Assembly (NCBI GenBank): GCA_030141605.1
Contig: JAQGDQ010000230.1
Location: forward strand, 293,985 to 357,984
DNA from: Tubiluchus corallicola
Lineage: Eukaryota > Priapulida > Priapulimorpha > Priapulimorphida > Tubiluchidae
Length of the DNA: 64,000 nt
Direction of reading: 5' to 3'
The notes under the pieces are model-generated. The model saw nothing but the letters and a program-made list of their open reading frames with translations, had not been told where the DNA came from and searched no databases. Position numbers and translations under genes: made by a program. The stretch's first letter is position 1. Every line of letters begins with the position of its first letter. Of this stretch, positions 26,206 through 60,396 are shown in pieces.

Positions 26206-29200
26206 ATGACCATCAGCCGAAGCGTGCTGTACTCGTTGGTCCTGATCACTTCAATCTGGGAAATATACGGAGACCTGCTTCCTACGAAGAGGTCTAGGAA
26301 AACTTCGCCGGAAATCACGCCGGAAATAGCCGATCACTTCGAGCATCACCTGCTAAACGTGTTCGGAATGACAAACCGACCGCGGCCGAATAAACGTCCG
26401 ATAGTGCCTGATTACATAAAGGGTTTGTACAACAGACAATTGCGAGATTCAGATAAATTGGACATGGTTTTTAATGTGAACAACAAGAAGATGTGGAACG
26501 TAAATACGGTGCGCAGTTTCTTCTCAGAGGAGGAGGAGGTGGATGCTCAGGAAATTTATGGTGGGTTTTAATCTGTTGACTTTTTCATTAAATTTTTCTT
26601 CACTGTTTTTAGGTGCTTTACTATAACCTCAGAACGTCATTTTCAGTAAATCAAACATACCGGTCTTGACCGATATCATATGTTTGGACTTCTAACAGAA
26701 GAAGCTTATTATTTATACATATAAACTTTATTTATTTTAGGTGGATACACGTACAGTAATATTACTGATACACGTTTTTCCACTGTGCAACGAATACATT
26801 TTAGTTGAGAAAACAGATATGCAACTGGTTATCAAGAATGTAGTTACATAGATATTTGGTTCAAAAACACGTGTAATACATTAGTTAACACTTAAAACTA
26901 AAATATACAAAGCCCACAGAAAACAGAAGCGATGCCAAAAACAACAATTATCAGTGTACATAGGCTTATTTATAGATTGCAAAGCTAATACATGTCAACT
27001 TGTAAGCTTTGAAGAGAATTAATAATGACCTTGAAAACAATACACGATTAATAATATTAAGGGAGGAAGACTACTTTATCATTTACTGTTTGTGCGGAGA
27101 AGCTAGCTGAAGTAAACTTTTCGTCCACAACACGGTAAGCCTTGTCTATGTGTGACAGAAACACCTGTGGAAGGTCAACCTCAAATAATCCGGGACCTAG
27201 TCCAACTTGTCATGTATAAGTTCTTCTCTGCTACGCTTTGTCATGTAAAACGTACGAAATTATTAAACGAGACTGGCTTACTTGCAGGTAAAATAATGGG
27301 AGGTTTTCTTAGTTTTATTTTCTGTCTATTAACAAAACTGCCTGACTGGTGTCAACAGAACTATTATTAATTTTGCCTATTTATCGAATCATTGCTTGAT
27401 CACTAACTATATATTGATCTTTAAAAGTCTATAAGCAATTCCCATGTGTCTTAGGTAGGATGTATTTTATTTTATTTATATGTGCATTATTATTAAACGA
27501 TTATCAGTAACTTGCAGAAATACATAGATCGCTCGCGTGTGCTTATATTTCAGCCCGGGTCACTTTACTGAAGTATGCTGAGTTAAAATGATTCAAAAAT
27601 CGGATTCGAAAAGCAAAGAAAAATGACTCAAAAGCACTTTAGTTACTTACAAATATAGATACCCCTCTCTAACGATAAAATCTGCGCCAGAATACCTAAA
27701 CCGCTACTAACGCAAATTGCGCAATACATCAGTAAAACAGACAGAAAACGCACCGAAAACACAAGATCACGGATGTGTTTCAGCAAAATGTAGTACGTTC
27801 AAAGGCAAGACTCGCCAAGGCACACAACAGGCTTACAGCTATAGGAGAAAGTTTCATCTTTTGGTCCTAAACTGTAACACGGAAAGAGCTCGCACACATT
27901 CTAGTACGCTACCACCTGCTGCAGCTGCTGATTCTTGCGGTCTTTCACAGCTTCTAAAATTTAATCAGTATTCCTAAAATGTTAACTAGAGTCATAAATG
28001 GCCGTGCTAACCTCAAGGCAACAGCTGGCAATGACTTTGGCTGCTTACCAGATTAGAACGGTGTGGTGATGTTGCTATCGAAAAACTTGATACGTGCTTG
28101 GCGTATTCAGTATTTGGCTGCTTGAAACAGTTCTGTTCACCAACTAGATTATATATTTGAGACCTGATATACACGAGTTTATACTGCAACTTTCAGGATG
28201 AATACTGTTCGCCAGGTTAGCACTTCCTATGCCAATCCCCATATATATCATGGAGTTGTCTGCTAATCTTGTATCTTCCATATCCATACCAAGCAAAGGA
28301 CATGAACGCAAACAGTACCACTATGGTTCCCTAGGCATCAGCTATTTGCAACTGTAATTTCAACCTGTGATCATTAGCCTCTGTAGCCATACTCATTCTA
28401 GATATTAATCAGGAAACAAACTGATTTTGGAATTACATTTTCAGCGTCACCCTCTAACCTTGATTTCACCATTGACCTTTCATTCTCTGATATATCAACC
28501 CTTATTAGCCATTTCGATGAATTTGACCTGTAACCTTGAACCTTCCATATGCACAAAAAAGCTCAGTAAAGAACAATTCTAAGAATAACCTTACCAGGTT
28601 TGATAATATTATATTAGTTGTTAACGGCAATCACACATGCTTATGAAATGGCCACTGAAATTAAAGAATTTTATAGTTAAAGACTGTAGATAATAAGCTG
28701 TGACATAAATAGCAACGGTTACCTGTTGCACGTAGCATGGACTCGAACATGATTGCAAGACAAACTAATCAATACACTGAACTGTGATAACTACATTTCT
28801 ATAAACTATATTCCTATATTCTAACTGTGTTTCTATAAACCACTAAAAGAGATATTTCCTATTTTCAATTTCTGTCATTACACCGCAAAAATGCGAGGGG
28901 TAGGAAAACTAGTGTATTGGCCTATAGAACAAGATTATTTCGCTCTGTATTGTGTTAACAACTGCATTTTATTGCCACACAATAAATGCTTGCCAGACGA
29001 ACCAACAAATCCAATGATAACTTCTGTTTGAGAACTCTTGCGGGCACAAAAGCTAGACAAGACTTCAGAAACCAGACTAATTTCTAATTGTTTGTTTCCT
29101 TTGTTGCAGGTGAAGTAGCAGACAACCCCAGTAGGACACTCAAATTTGACGTCGGCAGTATTTCTTCTAGTGAAAAGCTATCAGGAGCAGAGCTCCGATT

Positions 29201-29987
29201 GTACAGAGCACGATCCTCGTTTGAGAAACAGGGCAAAATTAACACGAGTGAGAATTACGTTAGAGTAAGTGTTTTTGACATTGTAAAGCCAGCTGAGCAG
29301 CAGTTAGACTCCATTGAGTGGTTGTTAGACACACAGTTAGTTCATGTAAATAGTAGTGGCTGGGTATCGTTAGACATTTCATCCGCAGTGGCAAAGTGGA
29401 CAAAAAAAACTCATGCTAATCATGGCCTCCGTGTAGTAATATCATCAGCGAATGGGACAGTGTTGGACAATGCGCATCCACACAGAGATCACGTGCGATT
29501 GCGACGATCAGCAGATATGGACGCCACCCGGTGGAAACAGAAACAGCCTTTTGTTGTGACGTATAGTGATGACGGCAAACATTCTGTCCGGCGGCGAAGA
29601 GGGCGCTCTAGAACTCGCCGGAGTTCTGGCCGACACACAAAACGGAGACATCGGCGAAAAGGATCACATAGAAATATATGCCGACGTCACGACATGTATG
29701 TAGACTTTACGGACGTCGGCTGGGACGACTGGATTGTAGCTCCTTCAGGATACAGTGCCTACTACTGTCAGGGCAACTGTCCCTTTCCCCTTGCCGACCA
29801 TCTTAATGCAACAAATCATGCCATAGTTCAGACATTAGTGAATTCTGTAGATCCTACAGCCGTGCCACGCGTGTGTTGTGTGCCCACGGAACTTAGTCCA
29901 ATCTCTATGCTCTATTTAGACGAGTACGAGAAGGTGGTACTCAAAACGTACAGAGACATGGTCGTAGAAAGGTGCGGTTGTCGGTGA
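26206..29987 (+). CDS. bmp2/4: BMP2/4 (decapentaplegic) family TGF-beta ligand
   Basis: Coding exons are 26206-26560 and 29110-29987, joined in phase 1, giving 410 aa (human BMP4 has 408). The ATG lies five bases after a 3' splice site (AG at 26199-26200), so a 5' non-coding exon exists upstream. A signal peptide covers about residues 1-22. The prodomain has the BMP2/4 hallmarks [17 protein letters not shown] and NTVRSFF at the exon end. From residue 279 to 306 lies a very basic linker with several RxxR convertase sites. The ligand domain (309-410) has all seven knot cysteines, [10 protein letters not shown], one N-glycosylation site (NAT), [17 protein letters not shown] and the terminal CGCR. 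The protein is secreted, dimerises and signals through BMP receptors and Smad1/5 to pattern the dorsoventral axis. The two-exon structure and intron position match BMP2/4 genes in general. Confidence 0.95.
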
Positions 29988-32900
29988 AACAAACAGGCAC
30001 GTTTATGCATGTGATAGTATTGTACCTCAGTAAAATATATAGATAGATTGAAATGGTTGCAACTGGAGTTTTTTGATCTGACGTGCAGACTCGCGTTTCT
30101 GCTATACTTGCAGACATTGCAGCACTTTCAAGCCAAAGCAAAAACTGTATAAGATTTGGAATTTGTAAAGTTAACGCGAAAAACCTTTACGGTGTATTTT
30201 CTGTCTTAATTGTTGTATATTTACACTTAAATATTTCTTTATTGAAAACTTTATGACGCTGAAAATTTTAAAATAAAATCTAATCTAAAAATATATGAAA
30301 CTTTATGATTTGTCTATTAAAATTTATATTTTTCACTTTTGTAATGTTCTAGTTTCCCAAGTCTCATCATACATGTTTCATCTTAAATTTAAATTCATCA
30401 AAGATATTTTGACTTTGTGAGCAAAATTAGTCTTGCATGATTCAAATTGCTTGATATAACAGAACCTTCGGAAAATTCTTACTAGGTAGTTAAAGTAGGC
30501 GGATTACGTAAATTGCCGAAAAAAGTTATAATTGTACAAACTGGTAATTTAGCAGATGTTTATGCTGCATTTTGGAAAATGTGGAGGCAATATGGCGGAA
30601 GACTAAGTTCAAATCTAATCATTGACATCATGAACTCTAGAGTAGCAGCAAGGTCAAAGGAACGTGAAGTGATTTTAAAATTTTGAACTATTCTATGTCA
30701 GGCTCGTTAAGTAGTTCTCGCATATCAGAAGTTTTGAAAATATTAAAATATTCATATTAAAATATAGTCTTTGATATTTCCTGATATTTACCATGTTTCA
30801 TCATAGAATTCAAACTTATCCATAAAAACCCTTAGAAAGTACATCTTAGAAACTACATAAACGACAAGTATTAATTGTTGTAATATATTTGTTATAGATA
30901 ATTTTCATTACTAAATTATATGATCGTTCTTAATTATTATTCAATACGTCTCTGTGTACATGCACTTAGCACTTTTATTGTTATTATTCCAGTGCCTAAA
31001 TATTATTTTCTTGTTTTTGTATATTGTACATTTTGTTAAATTCTGTAATAAAATTGCGTAATATATTTATTGACACATTAATGTATTTGCACGAACGTTA
31101 CATGATGAACAGTAATTAACTTTATGGTGTTGACAACTAAATTACGCGTGTATACGTAGACGAATTATTAACTAAATTGAACATCGGCCTGTTAAATAAA
31201 AGGTCCAAATCTCGCCTATCAAAATAAAACACGTGCATGCACCTGCATTAATATAACTTATCCAACTAATCTTCGTTTCCTAGATAATTCAGATTATTTG
31301 TCAAAAACTACAGATTCTTTTTTAAAACAATTCGGACTTTTTTTATATTTATTATTGGTAAATGCATTAATTTTTCATTTTCTGACTTTTTCTTAATTTC
31401 GTTGCCTAATGTTCTGGCGTTCCGATGTTCTGCTTCAAATAAACAATTACTTTGCTAAGTTATATATAATATAGATAAGCCTAGCGACAGGCTAATGTTT
31501 TAATATAATTATAATCATTACATTTGTACATAAAGTACTTAGATTTATATAAATCTGTATAATGTATATGTTATATATAAATTATAAATACATAAATTTA
31601 CACTTAGAACTGTTTCTTATTGTTATTGAATTTTGGTGTACAATTTTAATACCCTAAAGAAAAATAATTTCATATACAGTTTATTAAATCAAAATAGTTA
31701 ATGCTCTAGACTTTAACATGTGCGTAAGTATTATTATTGTAGTAATAACATTCGATCGTATTTGTGGCACTGTTCTACAGAGACGAAACAATATTAGTCC
31801 TAATAGTAGGAAGTCTATAGTTTAATACCTACTGCTGGGATTCTTTCTGGAACTGTGGGAAAATATTTTACTTCTGTATTGCCGGGTAAATAGTGATCAC
31901 TGTCCATTAAGATACCAAAAATGTGTCAACAGAATTTAGAATAAAGTTCTCCTCTAGGCCTGGTTTTCGTTGGAACGAGTCGGCAGCCTTTTTACCATAT
32001 TGAGATGAAAGGATGGTAAACTATCCAAGCTATTTTTCAAGAATTTCAACATTCTTGACACGATATGTGCTATTGTGCTCTGCCGCGTAGAATTCGCCAT
32101 GAAAACTCTTTCTCAATCTCTCTATGTATATAATTTTCAGACAGGACCCATGACTTTAGCGGGGGTGAGCGATTTCCTGAATGGGCGTTAAGCAAAGAAG
32201 CGACATACTCGGAAAATGGGCTTCTAACTAGGTACCTGGTTACTTACAAGACAGTAGCTTCAACACTTTCGTTTACGCCTCAAGTTCCCCATGGTTTTGG
32301 AACTGCCACCATTTCATAATCGCATTTTCTCGCCACTCCAGAAGAACAAATTCTTTCGTAAATCTTCAGCTATCTGCGCTATTGTATGAAATAAATATGG
32401 GCACCGAGATAAAGCCGAAATTTCCTTGACAATAGTGCTATGTGTACAAGCACTAAAGAGAATCATGCGCTAAGCTTGACGATATCTTTCCTAATCCACA
32501 TCTCAGCATTCTCAGGTAACAGGTGGGCTGACATACACCAACTTTCAAAGCAGCTAAAAGGACAAACAAAGCTCTGGCACTTAAGAAATCCTTTCAAATT
32601 TGCTCTGAGCCTGAGGGTGTACAGCTCTCTGGTGACCGATAAACCGTGCAGGTATTTTCGTGGAGCAATGTCAGACCTACTGACGGCGACGGTGATGATG
32701 ACTTCATCCACATGATCTTAAAGGAAATATGATTTTTCTTAATTAGTAGCACCTTTGTAGATTGCAAACAAGGTTCAAAATAAATGAATGAATAACGCTT
32801 CAGAAATTGTTACGTGAAGAAACTAGTGATCAGTATTTTGCAGACTTAAAGCTCAGATTTGTTATAACGACTAGCTCTTCGCGCAGATGTAGTACTATGA

Positions 32901-35219: not shown

Positions 35220-35275
35220 GTATAGAAATAGAGTATAGAAATGTCAGAGTATAGAAATAGCATGTAGAAATAGTA
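35220..35275. repeat. Short tandem repeat of a GTATAGAAATAG-type unit
   Basis: Four to five imperfect copies with variable spacing. Confidence 0.75.
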
Positions 35276-35873
35276 GTAACTCGACAATTAACTTTATAAC
35301 TAAACATACGTTATATGACGTAAACTTAATAATAGGTTTCAACTTGTATAAAACTGTTACAGAAAATAATGTTACCCTGAAAGATGTGTTTTCGTGTAGT
35401 ACCTCGTAAGATTGTAAAAGGATGCGATTTAACTTCTAGGCAGCTAGCAACAATAAACATAGCAAAAGATTGCATGATTTATATAGAAAATAGCAATTTT
35501 AATTTTTATCAATGTATCGATTGAAAAAATGTTAAAGTATGGTGTCTGTTTTAATTAATTGCTTTGTCTTCTTGTATGTAAATAACAACTCCATGCTTTT
35601 TTGTTATTGTCAGTGTTTAATATTTGTTTTACTTTTCCTACTAGTCAACTAATTTTTATTAATCGGATACTTATGTAACTTGACTGTACGAGTGTGTTCG
35701 AAAATAAATGATATTAATAATAATTGAAAAAAGTACTGCCTGGAAACACGTCTTCGGGTAATATTGGCCCAACTAGGGTTATACATAACCTTTTGCTAGG
35801 GGGATACAAAACAGCGAGTAACATTACAGAACATTTTGTTACATCAAGAGTACTGCTGAAACAATAGTGAATC

Positions 35874-35918
35874 TAACTTGACCTCAAATAACTTTGACCT
35901 CAAGTAACTTGACCCTGT
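35874..35918. repeat. Three tandem copies of a 15-16 bp unit TAACTTTGACCTCAAG
   Basis: Copies start at 35874, 35889 and 35905. Each carries a TGACC(T/C) word, the complement of the nuclear-receptor half-site AGGTCA, so three half-sites lie in the same direction at about 16-bp period. It may be a simple minisatellite. Confidence 0.75.
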
Positions 35919-39772: not shown

Positions 39773-40315
39773 CCCCTCTCTTTCTCTCTTAAGTTTACTG
39801 AAAAGATTTGTTTCCAGTGCGAATTTTATGTGCCAGAAAATTTCAGCAAACGATGTTAAATTTATATCTCACATAAATGGTGGAGATTATTACTGTAATT
39901 TGTGTGTTTATGTGCGTTTCTGTCCGTTAGTTTGTGCTGTTTTTTTTGTTTTTATGGTGTTTTAACAAGTTAAAAGACAATTCATTATAAGAGAACATTT
40001 TGCATGAGATTTACAAAAAATAATTTGCTTAAATTAGGGTATTTAATTTGGTGAGACAATTTTGAGAAAATTGTTGTTCGTAAAACTATGCAGATAGTAA
40101 GAACTGATCGCCGTCATCACATCTTTCCGTGTATCTATCTCTCAACTATTTTAATGCATGCGCCATGAACATTTCTCGGTACCACGCTGTCTGTTGAGAA
40201 ACGCACAAAAATTCTGCGTATACTTCGAGTCTGTGAAGCCCACTCTCTCTCTCGTCTTTTTGTTTATCTATCTGTCTGTCTGCCTGCCTTCTGTCTGTCT
40301 GTAATTCTGCTACAA

Positions 40316-40380
<65 letters not shown>

Positions 40381-41138
40381 TCTTTCTCTCTTCTCTTAAG
40401 TTTACTGAAAAGATTTGTTTCCAGTGCGAATTTTATGTGCCAGAAAATTTCAGCAAACGATGTTAAATTTATATCTCACATGAATGGTGGAGATTATTAC
40501 TGTAATTTGTGTGTTTATGTGCGTTTCTGTCCGTTAGTTTGTGCTGTTTTTTTTTGTTTTTATGATGTTGTATGTTGTAAATATGTAAATTACATATACA
40601 ATATAATAAAATACAATATGAACATAAGTTAGAAAAAGAATTAATTGAAATCAAAACAAATCAAATCTCTTTCTCCCCTTCCCTGTTATCTCCCTCTTCT
40701 ATTAACCAGAAAATCTTGAAACAAAGTTATTGCACCTTCATATAATGTTGAACAACATAGTATGTAACAATGAAAATAAACTTTTAACAAGTTAAAAGAC
40801 AATTCATTATAAGAGAACATTTTGCATGAGATTTACAAAAAATAATTTGCTTAAATTAGGGTATTTAATTTGGTGAGACAATTTTGAGAAAATTGTTGTT
40901 CGTAAAACTATGCAGATAGTAAGAACTGATCGCCGTCATCACATCTTTCCGTGTATCTATCTCTCAACTATTTTAATGCATGCGCCATGAACATTTCTCG
41001 GTACCACGCTGTCTGTTGAGAAACGCACAAAAATTCTGCGTATACTTCGAGTCTGTGAAGCCCACTCTCTCTCTCGTCTTTTTGTTTATCTATCTGTCTG
41101 TCTGCCTGCCTTCTGTCTGTCTGTAATTCTGCTACAAG

Positions 41139-41204
<66 letters not shown>

Positions 41205-41205
41205 A
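39773..41205. repeat. Recent tandem segmental duplication ending in (CT)n
   Basis: The segment starting at AAGTTTACTG (39791) recurs at 40398 with near identity. Both copies run to GCTACAAGCC and a long CT tract (40321-40376 and 41141-41203). The offset is 607 bp at the left and 822 bp at the right, because the second copy holds about 215 bp (about 40565-40781) that the first lacks at 39953-39960. Open frames in it, such as 39744-39965 and 40435-40632, are the same sequence twice and have no gene support. Confidence 0.92.
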
Positions 41206-41475
41206 ATTGCCCAGAATAAGGAATGGAGACAAAATGAACAGAAAATGCAAGAATGGCATGTATTGTAATTGTATTTATGATGGCTATATGAATTTTTACT
41301 ACCACTATATACCACTAATACAACTAATATCACAGATTTAAATGTCATTATTACAAATTCTTTTTCATAACTCACGCTTGACACTGCAGAATAATGTTTT
41401 TTCTCGTAGCACTCCCTCTCTCCCTCTCCTGTTTTATCTTTCTTTCCTGTCTCTCTCTTTTTCATTCTGCTTCTG

Positions 41476-41481
<6 letters not shown>

Positions 41482-41570
<89 letters not shown>
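41482..41570. repeat. (CT)n microsatellite, about 89 bp
   Basis: A pure CT run in a pyrimidine-rich neighbourhood. It keeps serine/leucine and arginine/glutamate frames open on both strands. None of these are genes. Confidence 0.97.
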
Positions 41571-41573
<3 letters not shown>

Positions 41574-42277
41574 CCTCCCAATCTTCTTCCATTCGTCTGT
41601 TTTTTGCATTCATTGAGCAATTCATTCGTTACAATGCATCTCACCCCTTACTAACAAATCTCAAATTCTGAATGGAATATTGCGAAAAGCGCCGCACACG
41701 TGCATCTCATCTCAATCAAACCTCGGTTTACATGAAATCAGTCATAATATTTACAACTTGAAATACTTTAAACCGTTCCTGGATGGCAAAATATTGGAAC
41801 ATTTGGTAAATCAGCTCAAAGACCACACATTGACGTTAGACTAACACTTTGGGTATGTCGGCTTATTTCAAACGCCAATCAACTCACTCAGCCTGCCAGA
41901 AATATGCAACACCTGTGATGATCTAGCAAAAAGCTTTCAAAGGTAGCTTTATTTTGGCAAAGAAATATTTAGAAAACCTTCAGACATATGGCATGTAATG
42001 ACATAATGTTAGATCACTGAGTTGATGGATTAATGTCTGTCTAGGTGCTGATGGAGTTAAGCATTACACGAGGGTTATGTCATGCTTGTGCAGTTAAATG
42101 TCACCTCTAAATTGTGAGTAATACCTATCAACTTTCACAGCTTGATGCCTTCCGTATCCACCCTCCTTCTTAGTCATGAAACAAAAAAGAAGGACCAAAA
42201 TAAAGGGGTGAATGGTAGAAAGAGACAAAAAGAAAACAAAAATAAAAAGAGGAAGGAAAAGACGAGAAAAAATAGCA

Positions 42278-42533
<256 letters not shown>

Positions 42534-42778
42534 TAAGAGAGAAACGGAGAGGGAGGAACAAGAGCAAGAAAAAGAGGGGACGACACATCGGCTGTATTAT
42601 TAGATAGCTCACTGATGCCATGCTGGGTTGAAAAGGTAATTCTGTTTACTCTAACTTAATTGGTTTTCTGTGCTTAAAAGCTTCAGCCGCATGAGGCACA
42701 CATCTGTTGCATGGCGAGCCCAGCTGATGGTGAGTGGTTGTTAGGTAGCGACAAGTTGTCTGCTAAACCCAAGGATTT

Positions 42779-45598: not shown

Positions 45599-45779
45599 AA
45601 TTGACTGAGGTTGTCATTTTCAGAGAACCAATTTTATAGTAGGAAAATTCATAGATTAGAATTACGGGAATTTCTAAGCAGCTGTTCTACATCTAGGAAT
45701 GTCCAGAGTAAGGCTACGAGAAGCAATAGGAAAACCAGACTAGCGAATACTACGAAGAAACTGCCGGTGTATAAGAGAA

Positions 45780-48343: not shown

Positions 48344-51300
48344 ATGTCCGCTATAAATTTGTTATTGTTCCTTTTGCTTGTGTTTATCATCTCACCACCT
48401 GGAGTTCGCTTAAATCGTATAGACGAGGTAAACATTGCAAACGAGACAGACTCTTCTTTACTAGGAGAAAAAGAAACTAAATTTAAACACAATGTGAGTT
48501 ACAGACGAAGTGACATACATCCAGGAAAACAAACTGATACTACAAGAGATCGCGTGAGTAACAGCTTGAAGAAAGTAGGCAGCGTTAACGTGGATAATTA
48601 TGATATAGTGGAGGAAGAAACTAATGTTATAAAAGAAAGCCATGAAGAAATAATCGATAATGTCGACACTGCATATACCGAGCATGGCGAGGAGCCAAGT
48701 ACAACAGCTGACAATGAAGATGCTACCAAAAACGAAACCACGATAACAAACAAGAGCAATCAGACAATCAGTTTTACACCCGCCATTGAAACTAGTGCAG
48801 AGGATACTCATGCCAACGAAACAGATAATAGGTTAAGTGAAGATGCCATAACGACTTACAGCAGCAAAAATACAAATGCCGAGAATTTGACTAACAGTAC
48901 AGAATTGATTTCGATTGAAAACAATAGAGATGTAAAAGAAAATGGATCAGATAGTAGTGGTTACTCGTTGTTGAATTCTGTTGAAACATCAGTCATAAAA
49001 GAAAATGCTACAAAGCAAAATTATTCTAGTTTGAGAGACGTTAATGTTACAAACAGGTTTACCATAGGAAATTATAAGAATACTTTTAATAAAGATAACG
49101 AAGCAAGTAACAGTGTTGAGGTTGTCTACAAGAAAACGTACTCTGTTTCGAATAACTTGCCAGAAACTGATAATCTGCAGTTGTCGAATTCTTTTGATTC
49201 TCTTAAAAACGCTAGCCCTGATGCGGAGAAAAACATACCTAACGTGTCTGTATCAAATGTGGAAGTCAGTGTAAAAGGTGGCAAAGAAAAACCTAGTGAT
49301 GTGGAATATATGCTGGGAGATCAGCCCGGCCGCTCCAGAAATTATCTTACCTCCAAAGAAAAACTGAAGGACGATAGCAAGAAATGGAGTAAATACTTCC
49401 AAGAAGGTTGGAACTTTGGTGAGTGGAATGCCGAAAGTGCTTTAACAGTTAATATTAAATTTATCTCATTGATAACACAAAATACATTTTTTTTCGGTAT
49501 GACGTGTAACCCATAGATTTTTTCTGTTGTATTGTTTTTTGTGTTTGATTGGATTTGTTTAGACGTTTTTGCAAAAATGGTAGTGTATATGTCTTCCCGT
49601 TCTATTATAAGGGCCAACAGTTTGATTACATTAAAATGTATTTAGTATATTCTTAATAGTGAGGCACCAATTGGCTGGATCCCAGCTTGCAAAGTACTAT
49701 AGTACTAAAACAAAAAGCGATTAGCTTTTTGGAGTGGGTAGTTGGTACAGTTTCTTTATTGGAAGGTAGAGAATATTGAACAAAAACAGTGAAGATTTTT
49801 TACAATTTGTTGTTACATCACTCACTTTAGTAAAATCTTATTTATTAGCCAAATTGCCAAGTAATTGTTTTTTAATCCACTATTGAATATCTTTCACATT
49901 TTCAGAAGATAATGGAAATGTTAACAAAACACAGACCACCTTAGAAATGGAAAAACAATCTCCACAGCTTAGTGGAAAATTTTGGTTACAATCTCCAAAT
50001 ATTAACATTCACAACTATTATTATGGTAAGAATAGTTATGCTTAAGCCTAGTTATATTAGCTTGTTATTATAACCTAAGTTATATTAGGTTATATTATAC
50101 TACATAATAGTATAGTGCAGTACAGTTGTAAAACGTACAGTATGTTCTGAAAATGAATCGGGAAATCGAATGTGAAACTACGGAGGCTCACAAAAACTGT
50201 TTTTTTTTCGTAATAGCTGGTGCCTCAATACCTGCTTCGCCAAATGATGAAAACAAGCAAAAGAACTTTTATCAGAGCACTGGTGCCTCAAGAACAACCA
50301 AAGGGCCACCTGTTATCATTGACCGAAAAGTGGAACAAATAGAAAACAATATAAAGAAGAAAGAAATGGAGATGGACGAAATGGAAAGTGAAGTAAGAAT
50401 TGTTCTATGGCAGCAGAAGCTACACAGCTCTGGTAATATTGTTTACGGATGATGGTGGCGATAATATTAGGCTTGTCCTCAGAGCACATAACTTTTCATT
50501 TCTAAGTTTGTACGATGTAACAGATTTAAAAAAATTCTGCTGTTGATCTTTTTACCGACCTTTGCTCAGTTGACCGTTTCTTCTGCCGCTAACCCAGCTC
50601 CAGTAGCCTAATGAGTATTTAGTTATCTCAAGTAGAGAAAAGGAGTAGAGAGAAACTAACCAGTCGCTTAACAGCTAAAATTATATCATTATATCTTGTA
50701 TAACGTTGGCTTACGTTGGCTTATACATTATAAATTCACGGTTTTTATTTCATTGCGTTGCCTATTGTTATTTTAACTAAGCTGTATTTTATAGTAACGA
50801 GGCTTCTATAAAATACGTAGGCTTAATTAGCTTTCTGCGAATAGAAATCCGTAACACCATAAGCGGAGTTTTCTCCGGTGGTATGTAAGCCTGAGTGCAG
50901 GAATTAGAGAGTAAGAGAAGTACGAGACTTATGAGTGTCTAGGTGTTGAGCGTTGAAACTAATAATGACGCATTCTAAAAGTACTCTTTCTTTAGTTAAT
51001 AATTACAAAAAAATATTTTTTCAAATTCCATTTTCTCGAACCGTACAAGGCACGTGTAAAATTTTGCCCAACAATTCGCAATTTTATATGAAAAATACGT
51101 CAGAAACTTTGCACTGCAGCCTAATGGATCGCCCAGCAGACTGAAATTATGCAGTTTTATTTTACAATGTCACTTGCACATCCTTTTTTAACGTTACTTT
51201 CACTTGCAGATGGGAACACTGAGAAGCGAATTGGAACATGAAATGTTAAGGATATGGGATTATATGAAAGAAACTATGCCCAGGCAGAAAGAAGGCAATA

Positions 51301-54300
51301 ACCAAAGGCAAGGATCGTATAAAGAAGTGAGAGGTCGAAAACGTACGTTTGGTGAGTGTTTGGTGTAGGCCTACTTAAAGTTCAGTTTTAGTATATAAAG
51401 CCCGGACCTGTTTAACACATGGCAAGCATTTTAACGGAATAAGTGCTTTTAGTGTAACCACACTGCAGTATTGCTCTCGAGATGGCGCCACCCTACAGTA
51501 TAGAATAAGTTGTGAGGCTGTCGATGAAGTTAATACAACAAGGTAATCCAACTCTTTTTAATTACTACAAAAAAATCCGGCAATTAACTCACTTACGGGC
51601 TCATTCTTTTCTCGACACCCCGTCACACGTTTTTCAACTCCAAATGTTTTTCCGTGAGTAGAAGTTTGGTAAGATGATTAGTTATTGTTATTAAAATATA
51701 TTGAAATACCTTTGCTGACATTTTTTCAGTTTCTCCGTTACTCAACAAAGTAAACCGGCCTTTGGACGGTCCTTTGGTCTGGCAATGTGACGTGGAAGAC
51801 AGTCAGATGTGTGGCTTCGAACACACCACCTATCGGCAAGTAATTATGAAAGCCTGTTGGACCCGACGACGGGGCTGCACTCCAGTGGACAACACTGGGC
51901 CTTGCATTGACCACACACTTGGCACTGCTGCTGGTAATATAACGTAATGTAATATAACATAATGACAAGACATTACATGACATAATTTAAAATGTGCAAA
52001 TGCCTTTAATAATTGCTATTACACGTAGTTATCAGGGGCAGCATTTCGTATGAAAATGGCGCCATCTTATCCTATTCTCTTAACCGCCAGATAGGAGGCT
52101 TATGTTCAAGCAATCTAAAAAGTAATATAAAACTCAGTGGAAATGGGTATACATGATTATTCTTGGATTTAGCATGGCATACGACAAAACTTGTACAACT
52201 TTATTGCTAGAGGTACTAGCATTAACAATAACATTAATCATGATTTTTGAAACATTAAAATCGCGTGTCAAGGTTTGTAACCGACTAAAGTTTTGTGAAA
52301 ACTGTCCTACATATATAACTGATTTATGTAGGAAGCCTACGATGATGGTGATGGTAACAACGAAGATAATTAGTAGTCACGAAGGTGGTGGTGGTGATTT
52401 GGCGATGATGCTGAACTTCTCTGTTTTTACAGGCCATTATCTGTACATGTCTTCATCCTACTGTGGAGAAGAAGAATACTCAGAAATCAAGTCGCCTGTA
52501 TTTGTTGTCAGACATGGCTCAGAAGGGCACTGCATGGAGTTTTATTTCCAAATGATGGGAAGAGACACAGGTATATAAACTTAAAGTACGCAAATTTCAG
52601 GACATATATATATATATATATAATAATCTTTATTTGCCATTAAAAACATTGATAATCACTGATAAAAACTTTATAGAGATAATCAATCAGTGTTAGTTAA
52701 TAAAAACTTACACTGCTGAAGGCAAATGCGTCAGTGCAATCTAAACTACTGTGCAGTAATGACGAATAAAATCAAACATATTTACAACTATACACAAAAA
52801 ATATAAAAAAAACTATGATTTAATTAATATGGCCGTGGGTATATGAATTCGGAATTAGTGTGTATGTTGTCGTACTGGTGTGATGGTATTTCATATCTGG
52901 TTAATATTAGTGATTTTAATTTTGTTTTAAATGCTGATAGGGACTTGATTTGTTTAACCTGTAATGGTAGAGAATTCCAAAGTAAAATTGCTTGTTTGAT
53001 TACAGAGTTCGTTCCATAGTGGGTATTTGTCCTAATTTGTTTTAGATTGAATGTTCTGGAATTAACGATAGGATTTGGAAAAAAGGTAAATCTGTTATTC
53101 TTGAATGGTTTGCTGATGTTGTTAATGTATTTAAATATAAAAAGCAGAGTAAAATATTCTTTGTGTGCTTCAATGATTGGGAATTTTAAAGTTTTTCTCA
53201 GGTTAGTTGTTGAAGCTTTGAATTTTTGTCTACCTGCCTTGTGTTTGTATGAGTACCCAGCTATCAATCTCAACGCATAGTTTTGAAGGAGATTTAATTT
53301 TAAGTAATTTTCTCTTTTGGTTTTTTGAAGTAGCGTACATCCATATGAGAAGTGTGGTAGAACTAAAGTTTTATATATTAGTGTTTTAGTTTCCTTTGTT
53401 AGTTGCCCTTTAACTTGTCGGAGATATGATGTGCTAGATGCCATTTTTGTGTATATGTTATTAAAGTGATCATCCCCTGAAAGATTATTGTCTACTTGTA
53501 TGCCCAGGAATTTAACATTGTTAGTTTGTTTGATTACAGCATTATCTATTGTCAAAGTGGTTGATGATGCATCATTAGTATTTAATGGGGGTGACAGTAT
53601 CATGAATTCTGTTTTGTCATTATTCATTTTTAGCTTGTAATGACTAAATGCCATATTTATATTTTTTATATCTTCTTCTAAATAATTTTTTGCAGTTTGG
53701 ACATTTTCATAGGCTATGTAGATTGTAGTGTCATCAGCGTATTGCGTTATTTGTGAGTGTTTTAATACACTGGATATGTTGTTTATATATAGGCAAAATA
53801 ATAACGGACCTAGTAGTGTTCCTTGCGGTATACCTCTGTTTAATGTGGCCCAGTCAGAAAAGTTGGTTGTATCTAACTTTACTCGTTGTTGTCTATCTTT
53901 GAGATAATTTTGTATCAGTTTTAACGATATCGAATCTAATCCGATTTGTTTTAAATTATCGTAAAGTAGTTCGTGATTAATGCTCTCGAAAGCTTTACTT
54001 AAATCCAAAAATGCTGCTAAAATGTATTGCTTGTTGTCTAAACTATGTCTCCAATTTTCTGTTGTGTGTATTAGGGCGTCAATGGTTGAATGGTGTTTAC
54101 GGAAGCCAAACTGATGTTTTGATAAAAGTTCATATTTATTTACATATGAATTTATCTGATCATAAATTACCCTTTCCCAAACTTTGCCAAAACAATGGAT
54201 TACGGAAATTGGGCGATAATTCATGGGATCACATTTTGGATCTTTTTTATGGATTGGAGTCACGTTTGCCATTTTACATACCGTTGGAAATTCGCCTCTC

Positions 54301-57300
54301 ATAATTATCTGATTAGCAATGTAAGTCATATGCGGAGCTATTACAGATGCGCTATCTTTTAGAATTTTGATAGGAATATCTGATGGTCCACTCCCTTTGT
54401 TGGAACTTAGGTTATTTAATATGTCGTTAATTTCTCCTACTGTGACGCTTTTGAATGAGAATACTGTGTTAGACGATTTGTTTTTTAATTTATTAATTAT
54501 ATTATTGCTAATATGAGAAGCCACTCCCTTAAAATTTCCAAGATTCAGGAATATTGCATTTAGCGCGTTGGCAATATCTTTGGGTTTTGTAATAACAGTG
54601 TTGTTGATCTTAATTTCGTCAACACGCGTTAGTTTGTTACGGCATTTATTTATTACATTGTTAATAATTTTCCATTTTTCTTTGGTATTTGTTGCGTTTT
54701 TACATTGTTGTTGTATATGTTTATTTTTCAAGCATTTATTAAGATTATTAAATTGATTTCTCTTTTTTTATAATTGTTATGATTGTTTTTAGTTTTGTTC
54801 TTTTCCCATATATTATACATTCTGTTTTTCGCTATTCTTAGTTTGTCAAGTTCAGGTGTTGTCCAGGTACTTTCGTTATTGAGTTTGCTTTGTTGTGGGA
54901 TTTGCTTTACGTTTTTATATGGTGCATGTACATTAAGGCAATATTCGACATTATATGTCAGAATATTAACTTGTGTATCTATTTTATCAGTCATATATAT
55001 GGAGGTCCAGTTCATTTTTGCTAAGTCGATTAAGTATGAATGTTTGTTGTATTGGGCGTAGTCTCTCATTAAATGCCAGACTGAATTTTGGTTATTATTA
55101 TGCTGTGGGGTCATTTTATCTACTAATATTGTGAAATGATGATCTGAATAATCACACGGGAAAGTATCATATGCTACGAAATTATTGTTACTATTCGAAA
55201 TGAAATGGTCGATTACTGTGGCTGATGTTTTAGAAATTCGAGTTGGTTTATTGTTGTTAAGTATGTGGACATTATATTGTTTTAAAAGCTCTGTGTATGT
55301 TTTGTATGCCAGTGTGTTTGTAGCTAAAATATCAAGGTTGAAATCGCCCATTATAAGAACTTTTTTATTTTCGAAAACACTGCGTTCTAGTTCTTCACTA
55401 AAGTATTTGAAAAATGTTTTGTGTTTGAGATTGGGTGGTCTATATATGGTTCCTATTACATAGTTCTCAATGCTGCACCAAACAGATTCAATCTTGCCGG
55501 TTCTGATGCCTTTCATTTCTTGTGGTCTCAGGTGTGAAGGTATATACATCGCAACCCCTCCACCTTTCTTATTTTTACATCTATCTCTTCTTATTAATGT
55601 GTGATTAGGTAATTCTATAGTGTTGCTAAGTATTTGTTTATGTAGCCAAGTTTCTGTTATGCCTACAATCAGATTTTCGGTGGCGTGAATTGTATCTTTC
55701 AGCAGCCAGTGTTTTTTGACGAGACTTTGAATATTTATATTTAGAAATTTGATGTTCTTTTTATAAGTAATCATGAATTTTTTTAGCTCATCACATGTAA
55801 ACTTAAGGCACAAGAAAACCTCCCAATTACAAAAAGCTTAAAAAACTCGTCTCGAAATTTTGTACCACTCACTGCCTTTTTGCATACAGGACTTGCGTCA
55901 GTAGTAAGGCTGTATAAAACATGTAAATTTAAACTCCCACGATGACCGTTAGACGCAGCCATTTTGACGATAAGTCATTTGAAACAAGTTTAGATAACAC
56001 TGAGTAAAGTTTGAGAAAATAATCAGAGCATTCGTACCGCACACATCACTAACTAAGTAAAATTTTTCAAATTACCATATTTTATCAAAAAGATTAAAAA
56101 TACGTTTTTTGGTTAGTGAATTGTGCACCCTGGAGGTGAGTCAGCGACATTTTACCAATAGGTGAAAGCGTTTTAAATAATTAATAATTTTGTTTTCTAG
56201 TTACATAAGCCTTTCAAGCAGGTAAGCGAAATGCTAAGTAATATGACTTTGCATGGAAAGTTTTTTTGGATATAATTTAACATTTCCTATTCTTCCCCTG
56301 ATTTACAATGCTTAGGTGACGTCATGCAATGGCGCCGTCGGAACAGTATTGCCGAAGATTTAAAATGAAAACAAAGAAAAGATTCTTTCATTGCGAGTAT
56401 GATATACGCATAAAATTGATGTAAAGTAACATAATTTTTATGGTGATTTTTCTGAAACCTATTTCAGGTGCCCCTTTTCTTGTCCTGTAAGGTATGTAGA
56501 ATTGACATGTGTAGACTCTCTTGTCACTCGTCAGGCAATACGCTACAGAATGTATCGCTGTTATAACCATACAATTTCAATGCATTGATGTATTCTTAAG
56601 TATTATTATTAATCTAAATGTTATATAGCACCTCATTGTGGGTGTCCCACAACATTACAGAGGAACTCCATTTTAACAAAGGTTGGCTTGGTCTTTTTGT
56701 TAGATTTTCTTGGCGTTTACATCGTCCCAGAAGGCCGTAACGGTCGACGGAAACGGTGGCATATTCGCGAAAGATACGAGAATCATCTGGACCAAACATG
56801 GAGATATGTTCGTGTTGGAATACCTAACGTTTTCCCAAAGTATCAGGTACGATAACTAGTGATAGAAAAGCAGTTAATCAATCTCCAGAACATTATTATC
56901 ATTTGTATATGTTTAATAATTAATTGGTATAGTTATTCATTGTAACACGACATTTTATTTGTTTTATGACCACCTAATGACTTATGTAAGCTCTGTAAGC
57001 AATTGAATTGAATTGAAACAAATCAGTTTACGTCTTAGTTAATTGGTCAGTTGGCTGGTCACCCGGTAGTTTAGTCAGTCGGTCATTTTGCCAAACAACG
57101 AGCAAAACCTCAACCAGACATTTATCTGTCTAACTGATAAAATTAGTAGTTAACCAGGCAGACCTGGCTAACTGATTATCTGGCTGGTTGACTGACCGAC
57201 CGACCGACTGACTACTGACTGTCTGATTAGCTAATCAACTGAATGAATTAGTTAAAATGAATGGATGGTCAAGCAAGTGAATAAACAACAAACAAACAAA

Positions 57301-57454
57301 CAAACAAACAATAAAATGAGCGAAGAATCACAATGGAAAAATTAATGATTCTTATAATTGTTTATGTTTTTAGATTGTATTACGTGGTCGTGCCTGGGGT
57401 GTAGAAGGCGACATTGCTGTGGACGATATAAAAATATTTGATGGACTTTGTTAA
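48344..57454 (+). CDS. Secreted glycosylation-rich protein with coiled coil and C-terminal MAM domain (eight exons)
   Basis: Exons: 48344-49418, 49906-50025, 50217-50392, 51210-51351, 51730-51933, 52433-52570, 56704-56846, 57374-57454. All splice sites are GT-AG with consistent phases, giving 692 aa. The start is the first ATG in frame and begins a clear signal peptide (SAINLLLFLLLVFIISPPG). Residues about 28-360 (exon 1) are low-complexity, rich in Asn, Ser, Thr and Glu, with about 14 N-glycosylation sequons. Residues about 436-475 form a short charged coiled coil (KVEQIENNIKKKEMEMDEME). A basic cluster RGRKR precedes the MAM domain (about 520-692), which shows WQCDVEDSQMCGFEH, paired cysteines and the typical ending GDIAVDDIKIFDGLC. 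There is no membrane segment, so it is probably an extracellular matrix or adhesion protein. MAM domains mediate oligomerisation and adhesion. I cannot name an orthologue. An additional upstream non-coding exon is possible. Confidence 0.85.
52340..52412. repeat. Degenerate GAT/GGT tract in MAM-gene intron 5
   Basis: GATGATGGTGATGG and GGTGGTGGTGGTGAT words lie just before exon 6, overlapping where a branch point would be expected. Confidence 0.6.
52824..54731 (-). CDS. LINE reverse transcriptase (ORF2, C-terminal part)
   Basis: This 635-aa frame holds the full non-LTR reverse transcriptase. Visible motifs are the finger region GPSDIPIKIL, NYRPISVI, FLDLSKAFESINH (catalytic Asp), RGIPQGTLLGPLLFCLYIN and the catalytic box YADDTTIY. 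The thumb and C-terminal region follow, with WNSLPLQVKQ near the end. All catalytic aspartates are intact. It copies the element RNA at the nicked target. The first ATG lies within what should be one ORF2 together with the endonuclease frame. The two frames overlap by a few bases and are offset by one base, consistent with a single-base indel in an A-run near 54760-54770 (minus strand). I read the copy as recently active but now broken. Confidence 0.9.
   Translation of the reverse strand: MKNKHIQQQCKNATNTKEKWKIINNVINKCRNKLTRVDEIKINNTVITKPKDIANALNAIFLNLGNFKGVASHISNNIINKLKNKSSNTVFSFKSVTVGEINDILNNLSSNKGSGPSDIPIKILKDSASVIAPHMTYIANQIIMRGEFPTVCKMANVTPIHKKDPKCDPMNYRPISVIHCFGKVWERVIYDQINSYVNKYELLSKHQFGFRKHHSTIDALIHTTENWRHSLDNKQYILAAFLDLSKAFESINHELLYDNLKQIGLDSISLKLIQNYLKDRQQRVKLDTTNFSDWATLNRGIPQGTLLGPLLFCLYINNISSVLKHSQITQYADDTTIYIAYENVQTAKNYLEEDIKNINMAFSHYKLKMNNDKTEFMILSPPLNTNDASSTTLTIDNAVIKQTNNVKFLGIQVDNNLSGDDHFNNIYTKMASSTSYLRQVKGQLTKETKTLIYKTLVLPHFSYGCTLLQKTKRENYLKLNLLQNYALRLIAGYSYKHKAGRQKFKASTTNLRKTLKFPIIEAHKEYFTLLFIFKYINNISKPFKNNRFTFFPNPIVNSRTFNLKQIRTNTHYGTNSVIKQAILLWNSLPLQVKQIKSLSAFKTKLKSLILTRYEIPSHQYDNIHTNSEFIYPRPY
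54728..55813 (-). CDS. LINE apurinic-like endonuclease (ORF2, N-terminal part)
   Basis: An EEP-type endonuclease of about 350 aa. LNINIQSL carries the conserved Asn, GITETWL the metal-binding Glu, GDFNLD the Asp-x-Asn pair, and SDHHFTI the Ser-Asp-His signature. It nicks the genomic target so the reverse transcriptase can prime. The first in-frame ATG is at 55774; the open frame extends further to 55813 without an ATG. It ends at a stop a few bases past the RT start, in a different frame, so endonuclease and RT are no longer made as one protein from this copy. Confidence 0.85.
   Translation of the reverse strand: MCLKFTCDELKKFMITYKKNIKFLNINIQSLVKKHWLLKDTIHATENLIVGITETWLHKQILSNTIELPNHTLIRRDRCKNKKGGGVAMYIPSHLRPQEMKGIRTGKIESVWCSIENYVIGTIYRPPNLKHKTFFKYFSEELERSVFENKKVLIMGDFNLDILATNTLAYKTYTELLKQYNVHILNNNKPTRISKTSATVIDHFISNSNNNFVAYDTFPCDYSDHHFTILVDKMTPQHNNNQNSVWHLMRDYAQYNKHSYLIDLAKMNWTSIYMTDKIDTQVNILTYNVEYCLNVHAPYKNVKQIPQQSKLNNESTWTTPELDKLRIAKNRMYNIWEKNKTKNNHNNYKKREINLIILINA
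55783..55962 (-). pseudogene. Short frame at the LINE 5' end
   Basis: An ATG at 55962 opens 59 codons that overlap the endonuclease frame and end inside it. Its tail and the endonuclease frame encode similar-looking sequence in neighbouring frames, so a second small frameshift near 55810 may have separated the original N-terminus. It could equally be an unrelated leader frame. Confidence 0.3.
56317..56336. promoter_or_regulatory. CRE (TGACGTCA) next to TGGCGCC
   Basis: TGACGTCA at 56317-56324 and TGGCGCC at 56330-56336 lie in MAM-gene intron 6. TGGCGCC is the GC-rich core of some vertebrate BMP-responsive elements. A second copy, as TGGCGCCA, lies in intron 4 at 51483-51490. No GTCT Smad word sits at the expected spacing, so this is weak. 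Confidence 0.2.
57040..57312. repeat. Inverted GACT/GGTC-rich arms and (AAAC)n in MAM-gene intron 7
   Basis: GGTCAGTTGGCTGGTC (from 57045) and GTCAGTCGGTC form an arm whose degenerate complement lies at 57175-57215 (CTGGCTGGTTGACTGACCGA). An AAAC run follows at 57288-57312. Confidence 0.65.
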
Positions 57455-58750
57455 AATGAAAGTGAACAATCATGGCATGTCTTTACAAAACGACCAGTTT
57501 TACTATTTGGAACTATATTATTTTGTTGTATATTTATTTACTTAATCAAGCGGTACGCTACACAGAGAAGGCTACACGTTAAGACATCAGTAGTTAATTA
57601 AGCTAGGCAATAATGTACTAAAGGTTTGACAAATTACCGTGTAGTTTTAGTAAATTAATTTTATGAATAATTTTGTTTATTCGATGTTTTAATTTTTCGT
57701 CTTATGCATGCTAGTGAAAAATTGGGATGTTACTGAAAACAATTCAGTACTTGTTGTTACACGTAAATTCATTTTTCTGTGACAATATGATAATTTTTAT
57801 GTTGGGTGTGGTAACTGAAAAAGTTAAAATGAACATAAAGATAAAAACGCAAATGTAAAGGTAAGTTTTAACGATTTTCGTAACGTTCATTAGCAAAATA
57901 CCATTAGCCTGTTTTAAAGAAAAGTCAGTGTACACATAAGCACAATCTAGTTACATATATTATGCAATATATTATTGGTAATAAATTTAAATTTGTATGA
58001 ATTGTTAACCAAGAGTAACAATCTATAGGCAAAACAATGCAGAAACTTGAAAAGATTTTTATTTTCGATCAGGGCATTCATGCAGGGCATAAAGAAAAAA
58101 AACTGTGAAGCAGAATAATAAGTACTGATATTTTTACCCTCAATAACTTTGTAATTTAAAATTGTACATCATGGCTCAAAAATGTATTGTTCAATAATAA
58201 TTATACAATAATTTACAAGGTCAAGTGTACCGCTTGGTACACATAAAACGTCTCAATCAATCAACATGTTTATAGATAAAAATAAATTACTAATAATTTA
58301 CCAATATTAACAGTTTGTTACACACATTATTTACATTATGTACACTTATGACAATACCCTATTATTATAGGCTTTAATTGTTTCTTGAAAACCTATTGTC
58401 TTTTCCTAGAATACTGATTTGTACAGGAATGCAAAACTTACCCACTTTTTGTACGTTGATTTTGTAATTTTTCCTGTTGATTTTCAGAAATAAAATATCT
58501 ATCTGTTTATCTAGTAGTAGGCTTACAGCTTTTGACAATAAGACGGGAAAGAGTGTATAATTTTGGCACATACAAACCACAAAACAGGCATCTTCCATGA
58601 AGCTGCTCTGTGTTGCTCTGCATAATCTTACAAAAGGGTACAAGTCTGAAAAAAATTGACAATGTATACATTTTGCTCAATTGTTCGCTATAAATGCTTG
58701 TCAACAAATTTTACCCTAGTTCCACTGCTACAGATCTTTTGAGAATCTTG
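57455..58750. other. Shared 3' interval of two convergent genes
   Basis: The MAM gene (+) and the ADMP-like gene (-) end tail to tail 1.3 kb apart. The 3' untranslated regions of both must lie here. AATAAA near 57980 suits the MAM gene. TTTATT near 58060 could serve the minus-strand gene, and would imply overlapping 3' ends. No other gene was seen. Confidence 0.45.
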
Positions 58751-60396
58751 CTACCGGCAACCGCACCCGTCAACAATCATATCATCATACTGACGTAACA
58801 CAACGTTGCTATTGCTGTCATAATAGAGCATAGATACTGGTGACAATTTTGTAGGGACGCAACACGCACTCGGAGCTTTTTTATAGTTTACTGAATTAAC
58901 CAATGTCTGAATGATGGCGTGGTTTGTTGCATTCAGCTGCTCGTGTAAAGGAAACGGACATTTTCCGTCGCAGAAAAACGCGTCGTATCCAGGTGGCGCA
59001 ATGATCCAATCCGACCACCCGATTTCATGGAAATTGACGTACAACTTACGTTTCTGACAGATGGACTTCGCGTGTCGACGATTGCCGCCAATGGAGATGG
59101 AATGGCGGCTGCGACGGTTACGGTGTCGCGACCTCGTTGATCGTTTCATTCGATCACTGCGATCACCAACATACTCATCGTTGCTATCACTCGTTAAACG
59201 CTTAACCCGATCGCTGCGACTATCATCATTATGACCATCTTTGCTGCCATCAACAGAAAGTCTATCTTTGCATTTAGATTCGTCTGTTGATTTGATAACT
59301 AGAGATGCTTCCAAGTCAACAACACCGGGGCAAGGCAGTTCCCGACTCTTTCTCCCAGCATACTTGATGGCCACTAGGAGACCATAATTAACAGAGTCCC
59401 CTAATAGCCAGTCCTTTATAGTCTCTGTTGCATCAAATGGTTCCCATTCCTAAAAAAGCGTGATAAAATATATATTTAGTAGGAACTAAAACTAATTATT
59501 AAACAAAGAGTTAGTAAACTAATTAAGCTTTTTGGGGGTTTGAGGCCATGATAGACAGATTTGTGTTTCTTTTTACTGTATCACCTTAACTTTAATCCCT
59601 TTAATATACATCGACAACGATATAGCTATTATAAAAAGACTAGAAGTCATAACTATTAAAACCAGAACCATGGCCAAATTCAAATAAAAGTATTAGCATC
59701 ATAAATAAATTGACTTGAAAGTGCTTGATCTTTTGGTAATAAATACATTATATCTAACCTACAGAAATTCTTCCGAAATTCATGTGCACGTTTTGAAGTT
59801 TAACCACATAAGAAGCAGGCAAGATGTTATTGGAAAAAAACATTAATCATAACATTTAAACTTTCAAAACTTCGTGGAAAGCTACGTCAGGAACCGAACT
59901 CAATGACGCGAAGCGAACCACGCCTTTCTACTAAGGACAGCTACCCTAGTACTTGGAACAAACAGAGCCTACGTCATAATAGTTTTAACACCCTTGTTTC
60001 CGATACATTACTGGAGTATTATTAGAACATAGCATTAACAGATTTTAGCAGCTAATATTTCGAAGGAAGTGGCCTTCACTAAGTAGCATTTAACTAATGC
60101 TGTACGCACCTGTTTCAGTGTTAAAATAGTCCTAGTTGCAATGAGTTCTGTTACTGACGTGAGAAGGGTCAGGTCTCGCTGCGTCTCATCTGCGTTGATT
60201 GGTTGAAGTAAACGATAAATTCGAATCTTGTACTTCTTGGGTACGAAGGGCAAACCGACGAAGTTTCGGGACAATTTTAGTCGAATTTCAGCTGAGTTAA
60301 GTTTCTCTGAACTTGGCATTCCCTCCAAATTAAACAACAATTTTTTCGAGTCACATCGCTGATGTCCTAGCTGTGAAATTGCTCTGACTATTCCGC
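58751..60396 (-). CDS. admp: ADMP-like BMP ligand, last two coding exons (5' part missing)
   Basis: Exons on the minus strand: 60396-60110 (starts in phase 1) and 59449-58751, joined in phase 0, encoding about 327 residues to the stop. The prodomain part contains [21 protein letters not shown], and the second exon opens [16 protein letters not shown]. Convertase sites of RxKR type (DRVKR, DRMKR) lie before the ligand domain. That domain has all seven cysteines, [26 protein letters not shown] glycosylation, CCVPT and ends [17 protein letters not shown] then VDGCGCR. The YYD...NVVLRxYxDMxVD ending is characteristic of ADMP rather than BMP2/4. It is 61 of 102 residues identical to the BMP2/4 domain in this window by hand count, with no gaps. 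ADMP is a secreted BMP that acts opposite to BMP2/4 in axis control. The signal-peptide exon was not found and may lie beyond 64000. A second, diverged BMP2/4 is the alternative. Confidence 0.85.

What the first reader, a model, noticed from the sequence alone, without database searches (positions are those of the whole stretch)
26206..60396. BMP2/4 and an ADMP-like ligand are physically linked, about 29 kb apart, in opposite orientation
Seen: two complete seven-cysteine BMP domains in one window. One is clearly BMP2/4; the other has the ADMP-type ending (YYD, NVVLRQY, VDGCGCR). Known: in vertebrates, planarians and some other bilaterians, BMP2/4 and ADMP repress each other and form a self-adjusting axis circuit. 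Inference: the linkage may be a relic of the duplication that made ADMP from a BMP2/4 ancestor, or may allow shared cis-control of the two opposing ligands.
Basis: partly seen in the sequence, partly recalled or inferred. Interest (0 to 1): 0.82.

Follow-up and report, generated by a model that had tools for sequence, protein, structure and literature searches.

The report
BMP2/4 gene beside Gdf1/3-like ligand

Summary
A two-exon BMP2/4 gene (+, 26206-29987) and the last two exons of a second BMP-type ligand gene (-, 60396-58751) lie 28.8 kb apart, tail to tail, each with all seven mature-domain cysteines. A MAM-domain gene (+, 48344-57454), with a non-LTR retroelement in an intron, lies between them. 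The second gene continues 5' beyond the window. It does not look like a recent copy of the BMP2/4 beside it. The ADMP label rests on motifs that GDF1, GDF3, Vg1 and partly GDF5 share. Propeptide cysteine motifs and a full-length tree favour Gdf1/3 (Vg1/Univin), but all Gdf1/3 and ADMP references are recalled, and mature-domain trees do not settle the name (ADMP fits slightly better there). Gdf1/3-Bmp2/4 linkage, and origin of Gdf1/3 from Bmp2/4 by tandem duplication, are published for deuterostomes (PMC10794066; next to BMP2 in non-tetrapod vertebrates, PMC6134012). The likeliest reading is therefore a known ancestral gene pair in an invertebrate deuterostome. The search of the animal's own genome, which could have settled the name, did not complete in 16 attempts. 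What could still be new: the animal may not be a deuterostome, or the gene may be ADMP after all.

The parts
26206..26560 (+). BMP2/4 coding exon 1: signal peptide (by eye) and N-terminal propeptide
   Evidence: Open frame with donor at 26560 that keeps frame with exon 2; PF00688 25.1 bits, just under its cut-off of 25.8
29110..29987 (+). BMP2/4 coding exon 2: rest of propeptide and mature BMP domain
   Evidence: PF00019 132.6 bits and PF00688 89.9 bits; best PDB match human BMP2
58751..59449 (-). Last coding exon of the second ligand: C-terminal propeptide, two furin-type sites (by eye), whole mature domain
   Evidence: PF00019 131.3 bits; best PDB matches BMP2, then BMP6, BMP7, GDF5 apart from chimeras; acceptor and stop
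60110..60396 (-). Preceding coding exon of the second ligand: middle propeptide; upstream exon(s) not found in the window
   Evidence: PF00688 hit; splice sites and frame; no upstream exon recognised
48344..57454 (+). Intervening gene: N terminus signal-like and rich in N-glycosylation sites (by eye), C-terminal MAM domain; MAM exons 51771-51933 (start approximate), 52433-52570, 56704-56846, 57374-57454
   Evidence: PF00629 60.9 bits over the first three MAM exons; splice sites and last exon; that the 5' exons belong to the same gene is inferred and their limits are approximate
52824..55837 (-). Non-LTR retroelement (endonuclease and reverse transcriptase) inside an intron of the MAM gene
   Evidence: PF00078, PF14529 and PF03372 hits

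Best explanation
The locus is most likely the Bmp2/4-Gdf1/3 gene pair described in deuterostomes, with Bmp2/4 on the plus strand, Gdf1/3 (Vg1/Univin) on the minus strand and a MAM-domain gene between them. Shown: two open ligand genes in opposite orientation, the second most likely outside the BMP2/4 group in sequence and with propeptide cysteines at positions that match recalled Gdf1/3 proteins. Inferred: it is the Gdf1/3 orthologue; the linkage is a remnant of the tandem duplication that made Gdf1/3 from Bmp2/4; the host is an invertebrate deuterostome. The inferred mechanism is that both are made as furin-cleaved preproproteins. From established knowledge, BMP2/4 signals through BMP receptors and Smad1/5, whereas Gdf1/3 forms heterodimers with Nodal (PMC10794066, passages) and signals through Smad2/3.
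For: Both Gdf1/3 propeptide motifs (a Cys seven positions before the F of an F[ND]L-type strand; C..[AT]SL[LVT]..C near the furin site) are in the minus protein and in 3 of 3 recalled Gdf1/3 proteins (Vg1, GDF1 in part, GDF3), and in 0 of 4 controls (window BMP2/4, fish-like BMP2 exon from L001, recalled BMP2 and BMP7). Random placement of its 3 propeptide cysteines gives both motifs in 7.5e-5 of 200,000 trials (motifs were chosen after seeing the sequences). A full-length tree of 7 rows groups it with Vg1 and GDF3, 87/95, not starred, with the minus row flagged as a long branch. Not a recent BMP2/4 copy: at 19 sites window BMP2/4 equals human BMP2 and BMP4 while the minus gene differs, against 3 sites where the two window genes agree against human and 6 where the minus gene agrees with human against window BMP2/4; window pair held together p-AU 0.0115 and 0.0409. 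PMC10794066 (passages): Gdf1/3 linked to Bmp2/4 in many deuterostomes and derived from it by tandem duplication. PMC6134012 (passages): single GDF1/3 gene in a region with BMP2 in non-tetrapod vertebrates.
Against: All Gdf1/3 references are recalled and unverified (GDF3 letters found no identical PDB chain). Mature domain alone: best match is BMP2 (66.0%), with Vg1 at 60.6%, GDF3 51.5% and GDF1 48.1%. The mature-domain tree does not group the gene with Vg1 and GDF3 (lnL 4.59 lower, p-AU 0.16) or with Vg1 alone (9.28 lower, p-AU 0.0748), while grouping with a recalled approximate ADMP costs nothing (p-AU 0.526). Without ADMP and Gdf1/3 rows it sat weakly with GDF5 (74/56), and BMP6/7 was not rejected (p-AU 0.3); BMP7 was not rejected in the full-length set either (p-AU 0.197). 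Propeptide BLASTP: BMP2 E 1.9e-10, BMP7 3.5e-10, window BMP2/4 1.9e-7, fish BMP2 2.4e-7, Vg1 only 0.098, GDF1 no hit. It keeps a BMP-like W..FD propeptide strand that the recalled Vg1 lacks. No ADMP propeptide reference was available, so the motifs were not tested on ADMP.
Confidence: 0.68

Rival explanations
1. The minus gene is ADMP, linked to BMP2/4 in a lophotrochozoan or other bilaterian; ADMP is a BMP ligand repressed by BMP signalling and expressed opposite BMP2/4.
For: Mature-domain tree with a recalled, approximate vertebrate ADMP: grouping not rejected, p-AU 0.526, and 4.6 lnL units better placed than the Gdf1/3 grouping. At least two coding exons seen with a further one upstream implied by the acceptor at 60396, so at least three, where BMP2/4 has two; scallop ADMP-like genes have 5 exons, BMP5-8-like 6, the others 2 or 3 (PMC10763453 section 6). 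bmp2/4 and admp present in all sampled Lophotrochozoa except specific annelid lineages (PMC13121700, passages).
Against: Propeptide cysteine motifs of Gdf1/3 type, though ADMP could not be tested for them; C-terminal NVVLRQY..VD.CGCR as in recalled GDF1; identity to the recalled ADMP only 52.9%, below Vg1 at 60.6%; I saw no report of BMP2/4-ADMP linkage in the listings (titles and abstract starts) or in the passages read from 11 papers.
Confidence: 0.22
2. The minus gene is a lineage-specific, fast-evolving duplicate of BMP2/4 or another unnamed BMP2/4-derived paralogue.
For: Best single match is human BMP2; grouping with the window BMP2/4 was not rejected in the 10-row set, p-AU 0.0885, where the BMP2/4 group without the minus gene had support of only 55/0.
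Against: Grouping with the window BMP2/4 rejected in two other sets, p-AU 0.0115 and 0.0409, with the BMP2/4 group at 93/96; 19 against 3 site patterns; propeptide identity 29/125 between the two window genes against 42/120 for window BMP2/4 and recalled human BMP2; an extra propeptide intron.
Confidence: 0.1

Closest known systems
Bmp2/4-Gdf1/3 (Univin/Vg1) linked pair of deuterostomes (PMC10794066)
   Same: A BMP2/4 gene and a divergent BMP2/4-related ligand close together on one contig; Gdf1/3-type propeptide cysteines against recalled references
   Different: Host unnamed; about 29 kb apart with a MAM gene and a retroelement between; distances, orientation and neighbours in the published species were not seen by me (figure not held)
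ADMP
   Same: BMP-type seven-cysteine ligand, most likely outside the BMP2/4 group; gene with at least three coding exons
   Different: Propeptide cysteines fit recalled Gdf1/3; BMP2/4-ADMP linkage not seen in the listings and passages I read
GDF1/3-BMP2 neighbourhood of non-tetrapod vertebrates (PMC6134012)
   Same: GDF1/3 in a region with a BMP2/4-class gene
   Different: The other neighbours named there (HAO1, TMX4, PLCB1, FERMT1 and others) were not seen: 9 ORFs outside the described genes, of the 36 ORFs of 100 aa or more, had no Pfam match above its cut-off; short exons were not searched

Membership tests
Gdf1/3 (Vg1/Univin) | TGF-beta mature domain with seven cysteines and a propeptide | tested here: met
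Gdf1/3 (Vg1/Univin) | Family-type propeptide cysteine motifs | tested here: met
   against recalled Vg1, GDF1 (part) and GDF3; 0 of 4 BMP controls; not tested on ADMP; motifs chosen after the fact
Gdf1/3 (Vg1/Univin) | Groups with Gdf1/3 in a tree | tested here: inconclusive
   Full length 87/95, not starred; mature domain alone not grouped, p-AU 0.16; recalled references
Gdf1/3 (Vg1/Univin) | Linked to Bmp2/4 (in many deuterostomes) | tested here: met
   literature passages
Gdf1/3 (Vg1/Univin) | Found in a deuterostome | not testable with these tools
   Host unnamed; own-genome search unanswered
Gdf1/3 (Vg1/Univin) | Nodal heterodimer partner | not testable with these tools
   Function
ADMP | Groups with ADMP in a tree | tested here: inconclusive
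   p-AU 0.526 with one approximate recalled ADMP
ADMP | Expressed opposite BMP2/4 and repressed by BMP signalling | not testable with these tools
   Expression
BMP2/4 (plus gene) | Groups with BMP2, BMP4 and Dpp | tested here: met
   93/96, not starred, but 55/0 in the 10-row set; 79/103 identical to both human BMP2 and recalled BMP4
BMP2/4 lineage-specific duplicate (minus gene) | Groups with the BMP2/4 of the same genome | tested here: not met
   p-AU 0.0115 and 0.0409; not rejected in the 10-row set, 0.0885

The most novel reading that the evidence does not exclude
The host is not a deuterostome. The locus would then be either the first Gdf1/3-Bmp2/4 pair outside deuterostomes, moving the tandem duplication to the base of Bilateria, or a BMP2/4-ADMP linkage showing ADMP's origin from BMP2/4.
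Probability: 0.2. Interest if true: 0.65.

Novelty: already known. Interest (0 to 1): 0.25.

Why it matters
If it is Gdf1/3, the window is another example of an ancient ligand pair left by a tandem duplication, useful for tracing how the Nodal co-ligand arose from BMP2/4, but the linkage is already in print. If the animal is a protostome, or the gene is ADMP, it would date a ligand duplication that is now placed elsewhere.

Tried and rejected
Relatives of the ligand were sought in viral contigs (none confirmed) and in prokaryote contigs (none confirmed; one locus, L001, a fish-like BMP2 exon on a Bacteroides MAG contig, taken as contamination). ARAGORN found no tRNA and Rfam nothing at gathering thresholds. 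Smad-response patterns: one match to a loosened silencer pattern (expected 0.04, 4 of 100 shuffles) that does not fit the strict form as I recall it, and one one-mismatch match to a BRE-like pattern (expected 0.44); not used. Upstream exon search for the minus gene was negative. An early idea that the two genes share no intron was dropped: the phase-1 propeptide intron may be the same one in both. Scallop Table 3 motif 13 looked like an ADMP N terminus, but the text read does not assign it. A peptide-string paper search listed 3 papers, none giving an ADMP sequence in what I read. Left out of trees: activin, GDF1. Trees used 104 mature columns or 336 of 509 full-length columns for 7 rows. Papers opened but not used for the argument: PMC3033397, PMC11521371, PMC4244043, PMC8753366 (passages).
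Full report
What is there. The window (64,000 bases, no N; GC 0.348, CpG observed/expected 0.78) holds a complete two-exon BMP2/4 gene on the plus strand (26206-26560 and 29110-29987; 410 aa) and, on the minus strand, the last two coding exons (60396-60110 and 59449-58751; 327 aa) of a second ligand gene. Pfam gives TGF_beta and propeptide domains in both. Both mature domains have the seven cysteines. The two stops are 28,764 bases apart and the genes run tail to tail.

What lies between. ORFs at 48.3-57.5 kb on the plus strand appear to form one gene, starting at 48344 with a signal-like N terminus and many N-glycosylation sites (by eye), ending in a MAM domain (PF00629, 60.9 bits over three exons) whose last exon runs from 57374 to a stop at 57454. 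A non-LTR retroelement (52824-55837, minus) sits in an intron of it. The two ligands are therefore linked but not adjacent.

Not a recent copy. Mature-domain identity between the two window genes is 59.6%, while window BMP2/4 is 76.7% and the minus gene 66.0% identical to human BMP2. At 19 sites window BMP2/4 equals human BMP2 and BMP4 and the minus gene differs; at 3 the two window genes agree against human; at 6 the minus gene agrees with human against window BMP2/4. Holding the two window genes together is rejected with p-AU 0.0115 and 0.0409, though not in the 10-row set (0.0885). BMP2/4, human BMP2 and BMP4 and Dpp form a group without the minus gene at 93/96, not starred; the same group had only 55/0 in the 10-row set. 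Propeptide identity: window pair 29/125, window BMP2/4 against recalled human BMP2 42/120, minus gene against recalled BMP2 33/122 and BMP7 29/116. The minus gene has an intron (phase 0, before EWEPFDA) that window BMP2/4 and the fish-like BMP2 exon on L001 lack.

ADMP or Gdf1/3. The verified GDF5 has NVVYKQYEDM, and recalled GDF1 ends NVVLRQYEDMVVDECGCR, very close to the minus gene's [18 protein letters not shown]. The minus propeptide (179 residues to the first furin-type site) has three cysteines. One lies seven positions before the F of the FNL strand; the other two flank an ASL strand. Both motifs occur in 3 of 3 recalled Gdf1/3 proteins and 0 of 4 BMP controls; random placement gives both in 7.5e-5 of trials, with motifs chosen after the fact. 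A full-length tree of 7 rows puts the minus gene with Vg1 and GDF3, 87/95, not starred and with the minus row flagged as long. Against this: the mature domain alone does not group with Vg1 and GDF3 (lnL 4.59 lower, p-AU 0.16) and groups at no cost with a recalled, approximate ADMP (p-AU 0.526); without those rows it sat weakly with GDF5 (74/56) and BMP6/7 was not rejected (p-AU 0.3); BMP7 was not rejected in the full-length set (p-AU 0.197); propeptide BLASTP prefers BMP2 (1.9e-10), BMP7 (3.5e-10) and window BMP2/4 (1.9e-7) to Vg1 (0.098), with no GDF1 hit; and the propeptide keeps a BMP-like W..FD strand. No authentic ADMP or invertebrate Gdf1/3 sequence could be obtained, and the cysteine motifs were not tested on ADMP. 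I put Gdf1/3 at 0.68, ADMP at 0.22, another paralogue at 0.10.

What is known. PMC10794066 (abstract and passages) states that Gdf1/3 genes have been detected only in deuterostomes, are linked to Bmp2/4 in many of them, arose from Bmp2/4 by tandem duplication in the deuterostome ancestor, and form heterodimers with Nodal. PMC6134012 (passages) places the single GDF1/3 gene of non-tetrapod vertebrates in a region with BMP2. PMC4564238 (passages) calls Univin Vg1/GDF1-related and lists GDF1/univin among ligands with seven cysteines. PMC13121700 (section 8 and passages) reports bmp2/4 and admp as single copies in Lingula and conserved linkage-group associations for BMP genes; the text I read does not say whether bmp2/4 and admp share a group, and the main text has no gdf1, univin, vg1 or gdf3. 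PMC10763453 (section 6 and passages) reports ADMP-like genes with 5 exons in scallops. PMC11226491 and PMC4600745 (passages) describe BMP/ADMP circuits and ADMP phylogeny. I saw no report of BMP2/4-ADMP linkage in the listings or in the passages read from 11 papers; most listed papers were not opened, and the library holds open-licence papers only.

Verdict. The most likely reading is the known Bmp2/4-Gdf1/3 pair in an invertebrate deuterostome (host inferred, not shown). The own-genome search that could settle the name did not complete in 16 attempts.

Noticed in passing
48344-57454 (+): Single-MAM-domain, apparently secreted protein gene between the two ligands, with a non-LTR element in one intron; its conservation beside BMP2/4 elsewhere is unknown.
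   Followed up: partly
175-1326 (+): Second reverse-transcriptase fragment at the window's left edge (PF00078 in 175-813).
   Followed up: no
40146-42655: Long (TC)n and (TG)n microsatellites that make spurious long ORFs.
   Followed up: no
32672-32687 (-): One match to a loosened Smad-silencer-like pattern 2.7 kb downstream of BMP2/4 (expected 0.04); does not fit the strict form as recalled.
   Followed up: no
L001 1-2000: A Bacteroides MAG contig (DKPL01000047.1) whose first part encodes a fish-like BMP2 exon: contamination or chimera in a public genome.
   Followed up: partly
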